Source: Elusimicrobium sp. An273
GTDB lineage: Bacteria > Elusimicrobiota > Elusimicrobia > Elusimicrobiales > Elusimicrobiaceae
NCBI RefSeq assembly: GCF_002159705.1
Contig: NZ_NFJD01000004.1
Location: 186,001 to 250,000 of the forward strand
Reading direction: 5' to 3'
Length of the DNA: 64,000 bases
Made by a program: the position numbers and the translations under genes. The stretch's first letter is position 1, and each line of letters begins with the position of its first letter. Below the pieces are notes generated by a model. It did no database searches and was not told the DNA's origin. It worked only from the letters and a program-made list of their open reading frames with translations. This document shows, one piece after another, positions 2,552 through 63,533 of the stretch.

Positions 2552-4921
2552 TTACAGCGCAATTTTAAGCTTCCGCGCCAACGCCCGCAGAATATCTTTC
2601 TTTTTGGCTTCTTCCCCCAGCGCCCGCAGCCCAAAAAAGACAAATTCCTGGGCGCGCACGGCATCGGGTTCGAATCCGAAAATTTCGGCGTAGTTCAAAA
2701 ACTCCACCAGTTTCAGGGCGCAGGCCGTATCCGAAGGATTGCGCGCAAAAGCAAAAGCCAGCCGTTCCAGTTTCTCGCTTACGGCCTCGCGCACTGGGCC
2801 TTTGGAAACGTCCAGCCCCAGCGTTTTGACGTCTTCCATCAGTTCTTCTATTTCGTTGACGTTTACGTCCGCCGCGCGGAATTCCGCTTTCAAATCGTTG
2901 GAAAGCACAAACTCCGCCACCGTCAAAAACGGCTTGGGGATCGGCGCGCCGATTAACTGCAGGCCGCGCACCACCGGGTATTGGTCTTCAAATACTTTCG
3001 TAAATTTTTGGTCGGTTTCCTCGTCCATTTTCCGCAGTACCAAATCCACCACTTTGCGCCGTACGTCCAAAAACATGGATGACAGCGGATACTGCTTGGG
3101 AAAAGAACGGCGGATCAGCGCCGCGCAGTCTTCATATTTGGCGGCCTGAAAAAGTTCTTCCAATTGGCCGAATACGGCCCCGCGGTCCAGGGTGCCTTCC
3201 GTGCCGGCCGCGCATAAAAAGTCCGTCGCTCCGTGCTGAAAAACGGCGAAATGCATTTTCCGCTCCAACAGCGTGGTGCGGGATTTAAGGGTAATGTCCC
3301 CAAAGCACAAGTGAAACCCCGGCGCAGCAAGCTTTTTGGGGGCGTAGGCCAATACGTCGCATTCATAGGCTTTTTGCGGGTTTACCGTATCGTCTGCCAA
3401 AAGCGAGACGACGTGCTCCAGCGCAATTTTTTCAATCGGCATTACCTGCGGTTTTACATACCGTTCATATACCACGGCGCCGTTTTTAAGTTCTTTTAAA
3501 TTGCTGGGCGCGGCGGAGAGTTTCTCTACAAACGCCGGCTCCAAATCCACCCCGCTGATCGCCCGGTTTAATTCTATCGCCCGCGCGGCATACTGCATAA
3601 TCTGCACCGTTTCAATGCCGCTTATCTCGTCAAAGAACCACCCACAGCTGGTATACATCAGCATGGCGTTGCGCTGCATTTCCAGCAGGCATAGCGCGGT
3701 GGGGCGGTCGTTCCAGGCTTTTTCCGTGGCGTGTTTTAAGAAAAAGCGGTGCTGGGCGTCCAGCGAGCGGTCTAGCACCAAATCGATATAATCGTTGCGC
3801 GCGTCCCACGGGTTTTTGAAATACTGGGAGCCGACGGTCTCAAACGTTTTAATCATTTCGTCGCGCACAAAATCCAACGCTTGGCGCAGCGGCCCGCGCC
3901 ATTTTTGGTGCCAGCCCGGTTTCATGCCGGAATTGCACCCGCAGTCGGCCCGCCAGCGCTCCACCCCGTGAAAACAGCTCCACGAGGAATTTTCCACAAT
4001 CTGCGCTTCGTACAGCGGCGGATGTTTGGCCAAAAATTCGCCGTACACCGTCAGTTCCACGTCCGGCGTTTCTTCCACTTTTTTAAGGCAATATGCCAGC
4101 GCCATTTCGGCAAATTTCTGGTGGTGGCCGTAGGTTTCCCCGTCGGTAGCGATGTGCATCAGCTGGGGCTCGCCGCCCGCGTTGTAGGTGCCCAGCAGGC
4201 GGGCGGCAAATTTCTCGCCCGAGGAAAGCGTATCGGAAAACGCAATCCCCTGCGAAATGGGCCCGTCATAAAAGAAAAGCGCAATGTTCCTGCCGCTGGG
4301 CAAATTGCAGCGGTAGGCGCGTTTGGGGTCTACCCCGGCGCCGACCTCCTGCCATTTTTCTTCCCCTATTTTGCGGATCCGCTTGCATTGCCCCGGCGCC
4401 AAAATTACAAATTTCATCCCTTCCGCGGCCAATACTTCCAGCGTTTCGGTATTGCAGGCCGTTTCCGCCAGCCAGATGGCTTCGGGCTTGCGGCCAAAGC
4501 GTTTTTCAAAATCGGCAATGCCCCATTTGACTTGGGTTTCTTTGTCGCGCGCGTTGGCCAGCGGCAAAATCATATGGTTGTACACCTGGGCAATGGCGCC
4601 GCCGTGGCCGCCGAAGCGTTCGCGGCTGAGTTTATCGGCCTCCAACACGGACTGGTACACTTCGGGCTCGTTTTTTTCCATCCACGAAAGAAGCGTGGGC
4701 CCAAAGTTAAAACTGATGTGGGCGTAATTGTTGGCTAAATCAATCAGGTTTTTATTTCCGTCCAGCAGCCGCGCCAGGGCGTTGGGAGAGTAGCATTCCG
4801 CACAAATACGGCTGTTCCAATCGTGAAACGGGGCCGCACTGTCCTGCTGTTCAATTTCTTCCAACCAGGCGTTTTCGCGCGGGGGCTGGTAAAAGTGTCC
4901 GTGTATGCAAAGATATTTCAT
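2552..4921 (-). CDS. GH57-family protein with DUF3536 domain
   Basis: A 789-residue cytoplasmic protein. The N-terminal half is a glycoside hydrolase family 57 domain: HGHFYQPPRENAW near residue 7, the nucleophile-type motif WLAETACN with Glu about 153, and ATDGETYGHH with Asp about 260. Both catalytic acids expected in GH57 are therefore present. The C-terminal half matches DUF3536. GH57 enzymes include alpha-amylases, branching enzymes and 4-alpha-glucanotransferases, so a role in glycogen or maltodextrin metabolism together with the phosphorylase at 30598 is plausible. I start at MKYLCIHG rather than 12 codons upstream because the conserved domain begins there. No Shine-Dalgarno sequence is present, and TATAAA lies seven bases before the ATG, which suggests a leaderless mRNA. 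Confidence 0.82.
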   Translation of the reverse strand: MKYLCIHGHFYQPPRENAWLEEIEQQDSAAPFHDWNSRICAECYSPNALARLLDGNKNLIDLANNYAHISFNFGPTLLSWMEKNEPEVYQSVLEADKLSRERFGGHGGAIAQVYNHMILPLANARDKETQVKWGIADFEKRFGRKPEAIWLAETACNTETLEVLAAEGMKFVILAPGQCKRIRKIGEEKWQEVGAGVDPKRAYRCNLPSGRNIALFFYDGPISQGIAFSDTLSSGEKFAARLLGTYNAGGEPQLMHIATDGETYGHHQKFAEMALAYCLKKVEETPDVELTVYGEFLAKHPPLYEAQIVENSSWSCFHGVERWRADCGCNSGMKPGWHQKWRGPLRQALDFVRDEMIKTFETVGSQYFKNPWDARNDYIDLVLDRSLDAQHRFFLKHATEKAWNDRPTALCLLEMQRNAMLMYTSCGWFFDEISGIETVQIMQYAARAIELNRAISGVDLEPAFVEKLSAAPSNLKELKNGAVVYERYVKPQVMPIEKIALEHVVSLLADDTVNPQKAYECDVLAYAPKKLAAPGFHLCFGDITLKSRTTLLERKMHFAVFQHGATDFLCAAGTEGTLDRGAVFGQLEELFQAAKYEDCAALIRRSFPKQYPLSSMFLDVRRKVVDLVLRKMDEETDQKFTKVFEDQYPVVRGLQLIGAPIPKPFLTVAEFVLSNDLKAEFRAADVNVNEIEELMEDVKTLGLDVSKGPVREAVSEKLERLAFAFARNPSDTACALKLVEFLNYAEIFGFEPDAVRAQEFVFFGLRALGEEAKKKDILRALARKLKIAL

Positions 4922-4928
4922 ATATATA

Positions 4929-4934
4929 TTTATA
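4929..4934 (-). promoter_or_regulatory. -10 box TATAAA seven bases before the GH57 start
   Basis: On the minus strand TATAAA is followed by seven bases of alternating TA and then the ATG. Transcription beginning the usual 6-8 bases downstream would start at or next to the initiation codon. No ribosome binding site is present. Confidence 0.45.
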
Positions 4935-14943: not shown

Positions 14944-15402
14944 TTAACGGTCCAAAACCTCTTCGGGTTTAAACCAGAGCGCAATTTCTTTTTCCGCATC
15001 TTCCGGCGAGCCGGACGCGTGCACGCAGTTTTGCATTACATCGCCGATAAAGCGCCCAAAGCTGCCGCGGATCGTCCACGGAGCGGCTTTTTCGGGGTTG
15101 GTGCTGCCGATTTCCTGGCGCACTTTGGCAATGGCGTTTTCGCCCTGGAAAACGAATGCGTAAATTTTGTGGTTGGGCACATTGTTAAATTCACCCATCA
15201 TATACTGGATGACTTCTTCCAAGAAAGGTTTCCCTTCCAAATTCTTATAGTGCGCCCGCGCCAATTCTTCAGTCAGCGAAACCACTTTTGCCCCGGTCAT
15301 TTGCAGTCCGAGGTGATCCAACCGGTCTAAAATAAGACCGCTGATGCGTTTTTCAATCGCATCCGGTTTAATTAGAACAAGTGTTCTTTCCATATATCTC
15401 AT
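14944..15402 (-). CDS. ndk: nucleoside diphosphate kinase
   Basis: This 152-residue enzyme equilibrates nucleoside di- and triphosphates in the cytoplasm. Family hallmarks are ERTLVLIKPDA at the N-terminus and NCVHASGSPEDAEKEI with the phospho-accepting His near 118. Length is slightly above the usual 140 or so. Two starts are possible: MRYMERT or, three codons later, MERT, which matches homologues. No ribosome binding site serves either. TATAAT lies eight bases before the first ATG, so a near-leaderless mRNA starting at or beside the upstream ATG is likely and I use that start. It heads a probable operon with the two pseudoenzyme genes. Confidence 0.93.
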   Translation of the reverse strand: MRYMERTLVLIKPDAIEKRISGLILDRLDHLGLQMTGAKVVSLTEELARAHYKNLEGKPFLEEVIQYMMGEFNNVPNHKIYAFVFQGENAIAKVRQEIGSTNPEKAAPWTIRGSFGRFIGDVMQNCVHASGSPEDAEKEIALWFKPEEVLDR

Positions 15403-15410
15403 ATGTAAAC

Positions 15411-15416
15411 ATTATA
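15411..15416 (-). promoter_or_regulatory. -10 box TATAAT of ndk
   Basis: A perfect TATAAT on the minus strand is followed after eight bases by the first ndk ATG, leaving almost no leader. Confidence 0.5.
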
Positions 15417-23648: not shown

Positions 23649-24213
23649 CTAGTCAATCCACAAGTCTTCCGCGTTTAGGCTTTTGATATTGTTGCACACG
23701 GATTTTCCTAACGGGGTATACGGCACACAAAGTACTCCGTTAGGAACCGAAGCATGCGCATACCACAACAGCAGGAAAAAGTCCTGTACGGAGTCTTTTT
23801 CAGACGGCATTTCTTCAGGCGTCGCACTGGAAGAGGGCGTTTGCCATCTGCTAAAAAACTTAATTTGAGCCGACCCCTGATTTTCGCCTTCAAAAGTTGT
23901 CGCCACATTGCTGATTTCCGCAAAAGGGCACTCCAGCATCCACGGGGCATCTTTACGAATTTGGCATACGTGGGAATAATCTACATCCAAATCGCTTAAA
24001 TTTTCGGCATAGGCTCCGTTGGCCAGATAATAAACTTCCTGCTGGCGGCGCAAATCCAGCGCCATTTGATAGTACTTCATACTTCGGCTGTAAAAACCGC
24101 CGTTTGATAGCGGGGCACGGCCACCGCCGCCAAAATGCCGATAATCAATACCACCACCAACAGCTCTATCAGCGTAAACCCGCCGCAATTTAAACAGAAA
24201 GTTTTTTCTTCAT
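23649..24213 (-). pseudogene. type IV pilin-like gene with two frameshifts
   Basis: Three reading frames together encode one pilin-like protein. From the ATG the frame reads MKKKLSV and stops. One extra A in the six-A tract at 24202-24207 would give MKKKTFCLNCG joined to GFTLIELLVVVLIIG and ILAAVAVPRYQTAVFTAEV, a textbook prepilin N-terminus with Glu5. A second one-base loss near 24081 then shifts into MKYYQMALDLRRQQEVYYLA, which runs to a normal stop. As written it cannot make a full pilin. It could be a decayed gene, a phase-variable A-tract or an assembly error. TACATT lies six bases before the ATG. It resembles the intact pilin gene at 51996. Confidence 0.8.
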
Positions 24214-24219
24214 AAATAG

Positions 24220-24225
24220 AATGTA
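24220..24225 (-). promoter_or_regulatory. -10 box TACATT six bases before the pilin ATG
   Basis: TACATT, six bases (CTATTT) and ATG, with no ribosome binding site, match the spacing seen before the genes at 39897 and 51269. Confidence 0.4.
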
Positions 24226-33768: not shown

Positions 33769-34239
33769 TTATTGAAAATTTAAAATTAAATTACTGTTGC
33801 TGTAGCTGTCTGTAAAAGTAGCTTCTTCCATCCCGGCGTTTTTACAGAGTTCTGCATCGCCCGAACAGGCAATATATTTCAACTCGCCGTCTTGATTGAT
33901 GGCATACAAGTCGTAGCTGCCGTCTGCGCGGCTGGTAAAAATAACCGCCGTGTCGGAACTTAACGAATAAAGCAAAGGAAAGCCAAAATACGATCTTTTG
34001 GTCGTATCTCCCCCCAAAAGTCTGTCAGAGGTATCGGCAATACTGTTTTTGACGTATTGGTTGCCTTGCATCACGTATTTGGCATTTACAAAATCGCTGG
34101 CCGCCCGCAAATTGCTGATTCCTTCCAAGGCGCGGCCGCGCTCCATGGACGAATAGTATTTAGGCAGGGCCACCGTTACCAAAATGCCCACCACCACCAT
34201 TACAATCAATAATTCAATTAAAGTAAAACCTTTTTTCAT
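33769..34239 (-). CDS. type IV pilin-like protein
   Basis: A 156-residue prepilin or pseudopilin. A two-lysine leader MKKG is cut before FTLIELLIVMVVVGILVTVALPKYY, with Glu5 of the mature protein present, so it should be processed by a PilD-type peptidase and methylated. The globular C-terminal part contains a cysteine pair (ACSGDAELCKN, near 126-134) that may form a disulfide loop. GGAGGCGTT is correctly placed for this start. It is a lone gene with no pilus-assembly neighbours. Whether it is a major or minor pilin, or belongs to a secretion or uptake system, is not visible here. Confidence 0.88.
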   Translation of the reverse strand: MKKGFTLIELLIVMVVVGILVTVALPKYYSSMERGRALEGISNLRAASDFVNAKYVMQGNQYVKNSIADTSDRLLGGDTTKRSYFGFPLLYSLSSDTAVIFTSRADGSYDLYAINQDGELKYIACSGDAELCKNAGMEEATFTDSYSNSNLILNFQ

Positions 34240-39582: not shown

Positions 39583-39789
39583 TCAGTCTTTAATTACCGT
39601 AATGGCAATATCGGGGCACATCATGTAGCACATGGCGCAGCCAATGCAATTTTCCGGGTGTTCCATTTCCGCCGGAAAATACCCTTTTTTGCTAATGGTT
39701 TTGGATTTGCCCAAACATTTTTTGGGGCAGGCGTTGACGCATAAATAGCAAGCTTTGCATTTGTTGGCGTCTACTTCAATTCTTGGCAT
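39583..39789 (-). CDS. korD: 2x[4Fe-4S] ferredoxin-like subunit (KorD type)
   Basis: A 68-residue protein with two full cluster motifs, CKACYLCVNACP (about 11-22) and CIGCAMCYMMCP (about 47-58), and little else. It is the electron-transfer subunit of the 2-oxoacid oxidoreductase and heads the operon. The start MPRIEVD has AGGAGAAC at the right distance; an upstream extension of 43 codons would run into the divergent promoter region and does not resemble the family. Confidence 0.92.
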   Translation of the reverse strand: MPRIEVDANKCKACYLCVNACPKKCLGKSKTISKKGYFPAEMEHPENCIGCAMCYMMCPDIAITVIKD

Positions 39790-39884
39790 AGTTCTCCTGT
39801 GGGCCCGGGGATATACCCGTAAAAACCCATACATAAAGTATATTTCTTTTGCATACGAATGCGCAATAATCAAATTGCTTTTGC

Positions 39885-39890
39885 TACAAT
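39885..39890 (+). promoter_or_regulatory. -10 box TACAAT exactly six bases before the msrC ATG
   Basis: TACAAT, ACCCGT and ATG leave no room for a leader, and no ribosome binding site exists. The arrangement is the same as at 51257. Confidence 0.5.
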
Positions 39891-39896
39891 ACCCGT

Positions 39897-40367
39897 ATGA
39901 CCGCTGTTTCCAAAACACAACTATACCACGATTTATTGCGCCAGGCCCAAGCTTTGCTGGAAATAGAGCGCGACCCCGTAGCCAATATGGCCAATTTGGC
40001 GGCCGTGCTATATAACGGGCTGCCCCAGATTAACTGGGCTGGATTTTACGTGCTAAAAGAAAATGTGCTGGTGCTGGGCCCGTTTCAGGGAAAACCGGCC
40101 TGCGTGCGCATTGCCTTGGGAAAAGGCGTATGCGGAACGGCCGCGCAAACGCAGGGAATCCAATGCGTGGCGGATGTGCACGCGTTTGCGGGGCACATTG
40201 CCTGCGACAGCGCTTCCCGCAGCGAAGTGGTGCTCCCTGTCTTTAAAAACAAAAGCCTTTGGGGCGTATTGGATATAGACGCACCCGTCCAAGCGCGGTT
40301 TGACGAAGAAGACTGCAAAAATCTGGCAGAAATAGTGCGCTTGTTTGAGCAAAACAGCGCGTTATAA
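39897..40367 (+). CDS. msrC: free methionine-(R)-sulfoxide reductase (GAF domain)
   Basis: A 156-residue single-GAF enzyme that reduces free Met-R-sulfoxide in the cytoplasm. The three redox cysteines are present with family spacing: Cys69 (GKPACVRI), Cys79 (GKGVCGTAA) and Cys103 (GHIACDS), 10 and 24 residues apart as in the E. coli enzyme. WAGFYVLKENVLVLGPFQG matches the family core. For an anaerobe it is an oxidative-stress repair enzyme. It diverges from the kor operon and seems to be translated from a leaderless mRNA. Confidence 0.93.
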   Translation: MTAVSKTQLYHDLLRQAQALLEIERDPVANMANLAAVLYNGLPQINWAGFYVLKENVLVLGPFQGKPACVRIALGKGVCGTAAQTQGIQCVADVHAFAGHIACDSASRSEVVLPVFKNKSLWGVLDIDAPVQARFDEEDCKNLAEIVRLFEQNSAL

Positions 40368-51230: not shown

Positions 51231-51262
51231 ATTGTATAAAATTTAACCGTTTTTTATACAAT
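51231..51262. promoter_or_regulatory. palindromic divergent promoter of gcvT and the metallopeptidase gene
   Basis: ATTGTATAAAA (51231-51241) and its exact complement TTTTATACAAT (51252-51262) form an 11-base inverted repeat. Each arm supplies a TACAAT -10 box, one for gcvT (minus strand, 51236-51231), one for the plus-strand gene (51257-51262). Each -10 lies in the other promoter's -35 position, so one polymerase should exclude the other. Confidence 0.6.
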
Positions 51263-51268
51263 ATATAT

Positions 51269-51937
51269 ATGGCAGACACCCAAAGCGTCATCAGCGACGT
51301 AAAACTGTTTATCGAACGGCTCAAAAAAGAGCTGCCGGAGGTATTCGGCCAGCCGGACGCCAAACCGGGCGCCGCCTCTGTGCAAACGCCTTCCGACACG
51401 GACAACAAAGTGCTCTATAACGGCGATTTGTTTGAAGCCCGCATGTACGTAACGCCCGACCAAGAAGAGGGCGTGGCGTTTGACGGAACAATTTTTCACA
51501 TCTACTTGCATTCCAAAGATTCCGACCCGTCTGCACTGGTAACGGAGTGGCTTCGCAACAAAGCCAACGAAACGCTGAAAGCCAAAACAAAAGAATGGGC
51601 GGAGAAAATTGGGGTAGAGTTTAACAACATCGTCATTAAAGACCAAAAGACCTGCTGGGCCAGCTGTTCGGGCAAGAAAAACATCAATTATTCCTACCGC
51701 ATCATCAAAATGCCGCTGGCCGTACAGGATTATTTAATGGTGCATGAACTCTGCCATTTGGTGCATATGAACCACGGGCAGGAATACTGGCAGTTGGTGG
51801 CGCAGTTTAGCCCAGACTACAAAAGCCACCGCCGCTGGTTAAACGAAAATAAAGGCTCTATTTTTGCGGAAGTGGAACTGACTTACCGCGAAGAACCGCA
51901 GGAAGACGCCCGGCTCAAAGATGAAACCACAACCTAA
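51269..51937 (+). CDS. YgjP-like (DUF45/M48) metallopeptidase
   Basis: A 222-residue protein. The C-terminal half is the YgjP-like metallopeptidase domain: KTCWASCSGKKNINYSYRI, then the zinc motif VHELCHLVHMNHGQEYW (His159, Glu160, His163, third ligand His169) and the closing PDYKSHRRWLNEN. The N-terminal 45 residues are unlike the family. The substrate is unknown; homologues sit near restriction or housekeeping genes. TACAAT ends seven bases before the ATG, so the mRNA should be leaderless; the 24 upstream codons in frame are therefore untranscribed. It diverges from gcvT. Confidence 0.88.
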   Translation: MADTQSVISDVKLFIERLKKELPEVFGQPDAKPGAASVQTPSDTDNKVLYNGDLFEARMYVTPDQEEGVAFDGTIFHIYLHSKDSDPSALVTEWLRNKANETLKAKTKEWAEKIGVEFNNIVIKDQKTCWASCSGKKNINYSYRIIKMPLAVQDYLMVHELCHLVHMNHGQEYWQLVAQFSPDYKSHRRWLNENKGSIFAEVELTYREEPQEDARLKDETTT

Positions 51938-53811: not shown

Positions 53812-54336
53812 TTAATATACTATCCACCCCGCCAGCCCACATACGGCTATCACGCTGATGGGGCCCAGTTTGTATTTCCACACCGCCACAAATGCCGCCG
53901 CAAAGAAAAGAAGACTTTTTACATCCACAAAATTTTCCCGGTTGCACAGCACCAACGCCGCCGCCGCAATCAGCCCTATTACCGCGGGGCGAAGACCGCT
54001 AAACACCGCCTCTACGGATGCGGCCTTGCGGTATTTTAAAAAGAATTTGCTGACTGCCAGCATCAAAATAAAAGAAGGCAAACACACCGCCAGCGTGGCC
54101 ACACACGCCCCCCACACGCCGTCCGCCGCCGTATAGCCCGTATACGTAGCCAGGTTAATGCCTACCGGGCCAGGGGTTACTTGGCTGATGGCTACCACGT
54201 CGGTAAACTCGGCCGTGGTCAGCCACGCGTGCTTAAAAACTACTTCGTTTTGCATAAACGAAATCATTGCGTATCCGCCGCCAAAATTAAACAGGCCGAT
54301 CTTAAAAAACGTAACAAATAATTTCCAGTAGATCAC
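53812..54336 (-). CDS. chromate-transporter domain protein (second half)
   Basis: A 174-residue membrane protein with one CHR (chromate transporter) domain: NFGGGYAMISFMQNEVV near the N-terminus, then VAISQVTPGPVGINLATYTGY and five or so hydrophobic helices. Single-domain CHR proteins work as heterologous pairs that equal one fused ChrA. It overlaps its partner gene by four bases. The family exports chromate or imports sulfate-like anions; the substrate here is unknown. Confidence 0.88.
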   Translation of the reverse strand: MIYWKLFVTFFKIGLFNFGGGYAMISFMQNEVVFKHAWLTTAEFTDVVAISQVTPGPVGINLATYTGYTAADGVWGACVATLAVCLPSFILMLAVSKFFLKYRKAASVEAVFSGLRPAVIGLIAAAALVLCNRENFVDVKSLLFFAAAFVAVWKYKLGPISVIAVCGLAGWIVY

Positions 54337-54875
54337 GGATGCCTCCGGCTATGCCTTGCATAGAGAAAACCGCCCAACCCCGCCGCCAAAATAATATATA
54401 CCGGCGACACCTTCAGCAGCCACACCAGCCCCGCGCAAACGGCCGGGATCCACACCGTCCTATACGTAATGCCGGCCGCTTTGGATAAATTAAACACCGG
54501 CACCGCAATCAGCGCCACCACCGCCGGGCGAATGCCCATAAACACCCGCTGCACCACGGGGTTATGTTCATACTCGTTAAAGAACAGGGCAATTAATAAA
54601 ATAATCACAAAAGAGGGCAGCGCCGCCCCCAAAGAAGCAATCACGCTGCCCCAAAAATTTTTAATCTTATATCCGGCCAGTATCGCCACGTTGATGGCCA
54701 AAATGCCCGGCGCCGCCTGCGCCACCGCCACGCAATCCAAGAATTCTTTTCTGTCCAGCCAGGCCTGTTTGTCCACGAGCTCTTTTTCAATAAGTGGCAG
54801 CATGGCGTACCCGCCGCCTAACGTAAACGTGCCGATTTTGGCAAAAATCCAAAACAAAACCAGAAATGCTTTCAT
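54333..54875 (-). CDS. chromate-transporter domain protein (first half)
   Basis: A 180-residue CHR-domain membrane protein, with FTLGGGYAMLPLIEKELVD, then CVAVAQAAPGILAINVAILAGYK. It is the antiparallel partner of the following gene, translationally coupled by an ATGA-type overlap. AAAGGAACGG lies before the ATG. No regulator or other metal-resistance gene is adjacent, so a general anion transporter is as likely as chromate resistance. Confidence 0.88.
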   Translation of the reverse strand: MKAFLVLFWIFAKIGTFTLGGGYAMLPLIEKELVDKQAWLDRKEFLDCVAVAQAAPGILAINVAILAGYKIKNFWGSVIASLGAALPSFVIILLIALFFNEYEHNPVVQRVFMGIRPAVVALIAVPVFNLSKAAGITYRTVWIPAVCAGLVWLLKVSPVYIILAAGLGGFLYARHSRRHP

Positions 54876-63405: not shown

Positions 63406-63533
63406 ATCAAATTTAAAATTTCTTTTCCCCGCAAAATTTGTGTTTTCCGGCTATCGGGGCCGGACAAAGTACGCCTGTAAACTTAAAATTTAAATTTACC
63501 GGGGAAACCCATATAGGCAAAATATCAAAAATC

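What the first reader, a model, noticed from the sequence alone, without database searches (positions are those of the whole stretch)
39885..39899. A -10 box exactly six bases before ATG: leaderless mRNA class
At msrC (TACAAT/6/ATG) and at the metallopeptidase gene (51257, TACAAT/6/ATG) the spacing is identical. The pilin remnant (24220, TACATT/6/ATG), GH57 gene (4929, TATAAA/7/ATG) and ndk (15411, TATAAT/8/ATG) are close, and mreC (TTTAAA/6/ATG) is a weak case. None has a Shine-Dalgarno sequence, while most other genes here have strong GGAGG. This points to a set of genes initiated by leaderless mRNAs. Such a class is known in Actinobacteria, Deinococcus and archaea; I do not know of a description for this phylum.
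Basis: partly seen in the sequence, partly recalled or inferred. Interest (0 to 1): 0.62.

Follow-up and report, generated by a model that had tools for sequence, protein, structure and literature searches.

The report
Leaderless gene starts in Elusimicrobiota
In this gut bacterium of the little-studied phylum Elusimicrobiota, a minority of genes carry their promoter directly against the start codon, so their messages probably begin at the start codon itself with no leader, a gene layout known from several other bacterial groups.

Summary
The core observation is real and far beyond chance. At msrC (39885) and ygjP (51257) a -10 hexamer ends exactly 6 bases before ATG, with no Shine-Dalgarno (SD) sequence. 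Across the genus this spacing holds at ygjP in 29 of 29 genomes and at msrC in 24 of 29 (the other 5 at 5, 7 or 8), although the six bases between vary. In a 404-kb sample of the genome, TANNNT at 6/7 bases precedes 31 of 161 SD-lacking genes against about 7 expected, and 1 of 173 SD genes. Genome-wide, TGNTANAAT/6/ATG occurs 32 times; its reversed control twice, spacing 10 three times. The base before ATG is a pyrimidine in 69 of 77 such genes. E. coli shows none; three further lineages of the same class show it; two other classes are inconclusive. Best explanation: sigma70-type, often extended -10, promoters starting transcription at the A of AUG: leaderless mRNAs beside an intact SD system. 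A known kind, apparently undescribed for this phylum; no transcript data.

The parts
39882..39890 (+). Extended -10 promoter element of msrC, TGC-TACAAT (hexamer 39885-39890)
   Evidence: Sequence; TANNNT at spacing 5-8 in 29 of 29 genus orthologues, 24 of them exactly 6 (4 of the 24 re-read by eye)
39891..39896 (+). Six-base spacer; predicted transcription start at the A of ATG 39897
   Evidence: Sequence; start position inferred from usual sigma70 spacing (recalled), not measured
   Evidence: Pfam GAF; no SD
51257..51262 (+). -10 hexamer TACAAT of ygjP; spacer 51263-51268
   Evidence: Sequence; TATAAT (19) or TACAAT (10) at exactly 6 bases in 29 of 29 genus genomes, 19 distinct spacers
51269..51937 (+). 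YgjP-like metallopeptidase gene, predicted leaderless
   Evidence: Pfam PF01863; conserved from codon 1, third positions of codons 2-12 vary most, 0.207 against 0.069 and 0.063
4929..4934 (-). -10-like TATAAA (TGC before it), 7 bases before ATG 4921 of the GH57/DUF3536 gene (2552-4921)
   Evidence: Conserved in 4 of 4 orthologues found (7 bases in three, 8 in one); Pfam; lacks the last T of TANNNT
15411..15416 (-). -10 TATAAT of ndk, 8 bases before ATG 15402, with TTGACA 16 bases upstream; predicted 5' leader about 2 bases (gene 14944-15402)
   Evidence: TATAAT 6, 6, 7 and 8 bases before the same ATG in 4 of 4 orthologues found; Pfam NDK
24220..24225 (-). TACATT/6/ATG of the pilin remnant; not evaluable as a gene start
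   Evidence: The ATG frame ends after 7 codons; the pilin frame is another one with an internal stop
63412..63417 (-).
   Evidence: No TANNNT at 5-8 in 5 of 5 relatives

Best explanation
msrC, ygjP and some tens of other mostly first-in-operon genes of this Elusimicrobiota genome have a housekeeping-type -10 element, often the extended form TGNTANAAT, placed so that RNA polymerase starts at the A of the start codon or one base before it. The mRNA then has no leader and no SD, and is translated from its 5'-terminal AUG by the leaderless route. Shown: the motif, its exact spacing, its restriction to SD-lacking first genes, its conservation, and the pyrimidine before ATG. Inferred: the 5' end, and translation from it by 30S with initiator tRNA or by 70S.
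For: Own sample: TGNTANNNT at 6/7 in 16 of 148 SD-lacking genes, 0.6 expected from spacings 15-60, and in 0 of 173 SD genes. Whole genome: TGNTANAAT/6/ATG 32 sites against 2 for the reversed pattern and 3 for spacing 10; all 7 such sites in the sample open ORFs of 60 aa or more. Only 2 of 31 leaderless-like genes are operonic, against 145 of 334 genes in all. Conservation: ygjP 29 of 29 at 6, msrC 24 of 29, nif3 30 of 30, PIF1-like helicase 16 of 29 at 6 and 26 of 29 at 5-8, birA 16 of 30 at 6 and 25 of 30 at 5-8, with many different spacers in the last two. Initiator signal: pyrimidine before ATG in 69 of 77 spacing-6 genes against 384 of 581 SD genes, p = 1e-5. E. coli negative control 0 of 64 SD-lacking genes; Deinococcus positive control 4 of 38 against 0.4 expected.
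Against: No mapped 5' end in this phylum was found. Spacing 7 alone shows no significant pyrimidine bias (17 of 23, p = 0.5). A good -35 is no rarer than at leadered promoters (31 of 100 against 34 of 112), so 'extended -10 in place of -35' is not shown. rplU has the strict box at 6 in only 23 of the 69 family genomes (of 90 searched) that hold its start pattern. The gene caller was home-made and matched the annotated start of 27 of 37 E. coli genes it found, out of 47 annotated in that stretch.
Confidence: 0.87

Rival explanations
1. The box is an A/T-rich translation signal of leadered, SD-less mRNAs (S1 binding or an unstructured start, as in Bacteroidetes), transcribed from a promoter further upstream.
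For: The genes lack SD, and the region -20 to -2 is A/T-rich. Nakagawa et al. 2017 (PMC5397173, passages read) say such biases cannot simply be attributed to leaderless promoters.
Against: The signal is a fixed hexamer with, beside it, the TG of an extended -10, at a fixed spacing with variable spacer. It is rare at operon-internal genes (2 of 31), where a translation signal should still be useful. Dinucleotide shuffles do not reproduce it.
Confidence: 0.07
2. The promoters are real but the start codons are misplaced: true translation begins downstream, after a short leader with its own SD.
For: ndk has a second ATG at 15393 that would start MERTLVLIKPDA; my caller mis-set some starts (27 of 37 right in E. 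coli).
Against: ygjP is conserved from codon 1 in 29 genomes, with third codon positions most variable from codon 2 on; L21 begins at this ATG and matches its Pfam family from residue 1; misplaced starts would smear a peak, not sharpen it at 6.
Confidence: 0.05
3. Chance: A/T-rich intergenic DNA in front of ATGs yields TANNNT at any spacing.
For: TANNNT alone is common upstream of starts, about 8 per spacing in the sample of 321 genes.
Against: The peak sits at 6-7 only, p about 1e-17 for TGNTANNNT in SD-lacking genes; non-start ATGs show no peak; conservation.
Confidence: 0.01

Closest known systems
-10-motif adjacent to ORFs, leaderless mRNAs of Deinococcus-Thermus (PMC12340547; outline and section 7 read)
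   Same: TANNNT about 6-7 bases before the start, a separate GGAG class of genes beside it
   Different: In D. radiodurans the motif is in nearly one-third of genes and was tested experimentally; here about 5-7%, a TANAAT core and a frequent TG extension, untested
TA-led (leaderless) genes in bacteria, Zheng et al. 2011 (PMC3160421; abstract, section 7 and passages with Table 2 read)
   Same: Pribnow-like box about 10 bp upstream of the start taken as leaderless; a TG peak before the box noted in Lactococcus; several groups at a few percent of genes
   Different: The groups listed in the text do not include Elusimicrobia; 8 of 20 'Other Bacteria' genomes are positive without names in the text I saw, so E. 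minutum may be among them (supplement not open to me)
Leaderless transcriptome of Mycobacterium tuberculosis (PMC3898074; listing and start of abstract only)
   Same: Leaderless and SD genes side by side (recalled)
   Different: There mapped by 5'-end RNA-seq; another phylum

Membership tests
Bacterial leaderless genes | -10 element ending 6-7 bases before the start codon, above chance | tested here: met
Bacterial leaderless genes | No Shine-Dalgarno before the start | tested here: met
   TANNNT at 6/7 in 1-2 of 173 SD genes against 30 of 148 or 31 of 161 SD-lacking genes; no SD in 5 of 5 relatives at msrC and at ygjP
Bacterial leaderless genes | Spacing kept in orthologues while the spacer sequence changes | tested here: met
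   ygjP 29 of 29 with 19 spacers; msrC 24 of 29; nif3, birA and PIF1-like helicase
Bacterial leaderless genes | mRNA 5' end at the first base of the start codon | not testable with these tools
   No RNA data; the pyrimidine-A step at the ATG is indirect support
Bacterial leaderless genes | Translation from a 5'-terminal AUG | not testable with these tools
   Needs ribosome profiling or N-terminal proteomics
Extended -10 promoters that need no -35 | TG one base before the -10, and absence of a -35 | tested here: inconclusive
   TGn in 37 of 100 leaderless-like against 21 of 112 leadered -10s; -35 match of 4 or more in 31 of 100 against 34 of 112

The most novel reading that the evidence does not exclude
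Leaderless initiation is an ancestral trait of one class of Elusimicrobiota, and the retained gene set (ribosomal protein L21, peptide deformylase, biotin ligase, NIF3, MsrC, Ndk and others) is kept leaderless as a co-regulated group, whose translation relative to SD genes shifts with initiation-factor or 70S levels in the gut environment.
Probability: 0.1. Interest if true: 0.65.

Novelty: new member of a known kind. Interest (0 to 1): 0.45.

Why it matters
It extends leaderless genes to a phylum for which two literature searches of the held library found no description. In practice, gene callers tuned to SD would misplace some starts here. The presence within one class and the unclear state of sister classes make gain and loss of leaderless initiation testable, and per-gene switching between leaderless and SD starts can be followed.

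Tried and rejected
mreC as a member: rejected, no conserved box. Pilin remnant: not a usable gene start. The second start of ndk (ATG 15393) was considered; the first ATG is favoured because TATAAT stays 6-8 bases from it in 4 of 4 orthologues found. An RNA element in the intergenic regions: Rfam gave only two tRNAs in the window. A functional theme: Pfam of 18 leaderless-like proteins (17 with a hit) showed mixed functions; no theme was tested formally. Deep orthologue comparison gave only four usable pairs for leaderless genes, 3 of 4 with a -10 at 5-8. Smaller samples with a stricter caller gave low power for several lineages; they were replaced by larger samples, and the small samples of G103/G144, G109 and G064 were not taken further (each without significant excess). 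Minus-strand loci were read in the wrong orientation and corrected.

Searches for prior description: 'leaderless' with 'Elusimicrobi' gave 2 papers, neither describing it as far as seen (one by passages; the other by listing and start of abstract only); 'Elusimicrobium minutum' with 'transcription start' gave 1 paper, on sigma-54 (listing and start of abstract). The GeneMarkS-2 paper is not held; its genome-wide predictions, quoted in PMC9581028 (passages), could already include this phylum.

Full report
What was checked. The window is G000:C4:186001-250000 of a 1.50-Mb, 14-contig genome. Its closest named msrC relatives are Elusimicrobiaceae/Elusimicrobiales metagenome assemblies, so the phylum is taken to be Elusimicrobiota. 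The two exact cases are as stated: TACAAT, six bases, ATG at msrC and at the YgjP-like metallopeptidase gene (Pfam). GH57 (7 bases) and ndk (8 bases) are as quoted, on the minus strand.

Conservation. In 29 genomes of the genus whose start could be read (of 35 genus genomes with a match, the own one included, 30 of which became loci), ygjP has TATAAT or TACAAT exactly six bases before ATG in 29 of 29, with 19 different spacers. msrC has TANNNT at exactly six in 24 of 29 genus genomes read: 20 by script, and four (L098, L099, L100, L102) re-read by eye because the script took an upstream ATG. The other five stand at 5, 7, 7, 7 and 8. A 30th msrC hit, from another family, has no box. Three further candidates of the own genome were searched in 61 genomes and the best 30 loci of each read: nif3 30 of 30 at six (its upstream region is conserved more widely, with only 6 spacers, so this is weaker evidence); PIF1-like helicase 16 of 29 at six and 26 of 29 at 5-8 (one further locus cut off by a contig end); birA 16 of 30 at six and 25 of 30 at 5-8. 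In the five syntenic relatives, ndk (4 of 4 found) and GH57 (4 of 4 found) keep the box near the start, and mreC does not in 5 of 5.

Statistics in the own genome. Genes were called by a coding-only model that does not look upstream, on 404 kb: the window plus 340 kb of what fetched, three tiny contigs left out. First run, 321 genes: TGNTANNNT at 6/7 in 16 of 148 SD-lacking genes against 0.6 expected from spacings 15-60, none in 173 SD genes; 9332 non-start ATGs show no such peak. Second run with a lower threshold, 334 genes: TANNNT at 6/7 in 31 of 161 SD-lacking genes against 7.2 expected, and in 1 of 173 SD genes; dinucleotide shuffles give 6.7 +- 2.7, maximum 16 in 300. Of the 31, two are operonic, against 145 of 334 overall. 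Over the whole genome TGNTANAAT/6/ATG occurs 32 times against 2 for the pattern read backwards, and with spacing 10 only 3 times. In the sample all 7 such sites open ORFs of at least 60 aa; two of them, rplU (L21) and a carbonic anhydrase, had been missed or mis-started by my caller. The excess corresponds to about 5-7% of genes in the sample.

Signal anatomy. In 77 pooled spacing-6 genes of five sample groups the positions that were not used for selection show G at -14 (51%) and T at -15 (64%), an extended -10, and T or C at -1 (70% and 19%). Pyrimidine at -1 is 69 of 77 against 384 of 581 for SD genes, p = 1e-5; for spacing 7 it is 17 of 23, not significant. -35 matches are no rarer than at leadered promoters. 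The 16S tail pattern with the anti-SD core is present once in the own genome, so the SD route is intact, as the many SD genes show.

Range. The same analysis: another genus of the family, G090, 32 of 124 SD-lacking genes against 9.9 expected; order-mate G046, 13 of 95 against 2.8; class-mate G151, 17 of 128 against 1.6; five genus relatives, 26 of 176 against shuffles 7.6 (these are syntenic stretches, so not independent genes). Two genomes of other classes are inconclusive: G081 12 of 107 against 6.3, G072 10 of 119 against 5.7, both without extended boxes at 6/7. E. coli K-12 (200 kb) 0 of 64 against 2.0. Deinococcus plasmids (100 kb) 4 of 38 against 0.4. rplU carries the strict box at six in 23 of the 69 family genomes (of 90) in which its start pattern was found, two of the 23 in another genus; the other 46 do not match the strict pattern and were not read further.

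Mechanism. A -10 hexamer ending six bases before ATG puts the usual start point of sigma70 transcription, seven bases after the hexamer, on the A of ATG (textbook knowledge). The pyrimidine-A step, the restriction to first genes and the absence of SD all fit. Translation from a 5'-terminal AUG is then the established leaderless route. The 5' ends themselves are inferred, not measured.

Known or new. Leaderless genes in bacteria are well known: Zheng et al. 2011 report them in 207 of 953 bacterial genomes, list groups without Elusimicrobia, and note the TG peak in Lactococcus; in D. radiodurans the box lies 6-7 bases before ORFs; GeneMarkS-2 predictions quoted in PMC9581028 give 21.6% of bacterial species. 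Two literature searches found no account for this phylum, but unnamed 'Other Bacteria' in Zheng's table and unseen supplements could include it. Hence: a new member of a known kind, solidly supported by sequence, of moderate interest.

Noticed in passing
window about 39834-39870, minus strand: A block conserved upstream of msrC in many relatives reads on the minus strand as TTGCGC, 18 bases, TATACT: probably the ordinary leadered promoter of the divergent small gene 39583-39789, which has an SD.
   Followed up: partly
G000:C4:81197-81240 (upstream of nif3): The region upstream of nif3 is conserved to about -40 in 30 genomes, well beyond the -10 box, which suggests an added regulatory site or a divergent promoter.
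   Followed up: no
window 54333-54875, minus strand: Orthologues in G028 and G031 have a -10 box 6 or 7 bases before ATG, G024 scores as SD-led by the 4-base criterion, and G021 and G035 have neither: a possible case of switching between leaderless and leadered starts.
   Followed up: no
window 23649-24225, minus strand: A broken type IV pilin-like gene: FTLIELLVVV lies in another frame than the ATG and has an internal stop; an intact pilin with a strong SD lies at 33769-34239.
   Followed up: partly
G000:C5:7096-7142, minus strand: The gene for ribosomal protein L21 (rplU) has TATAAT six bases before its ATG, conserved in part of the family; Zheng et al. found translation genes less often leaderless.
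   Followed up: partly
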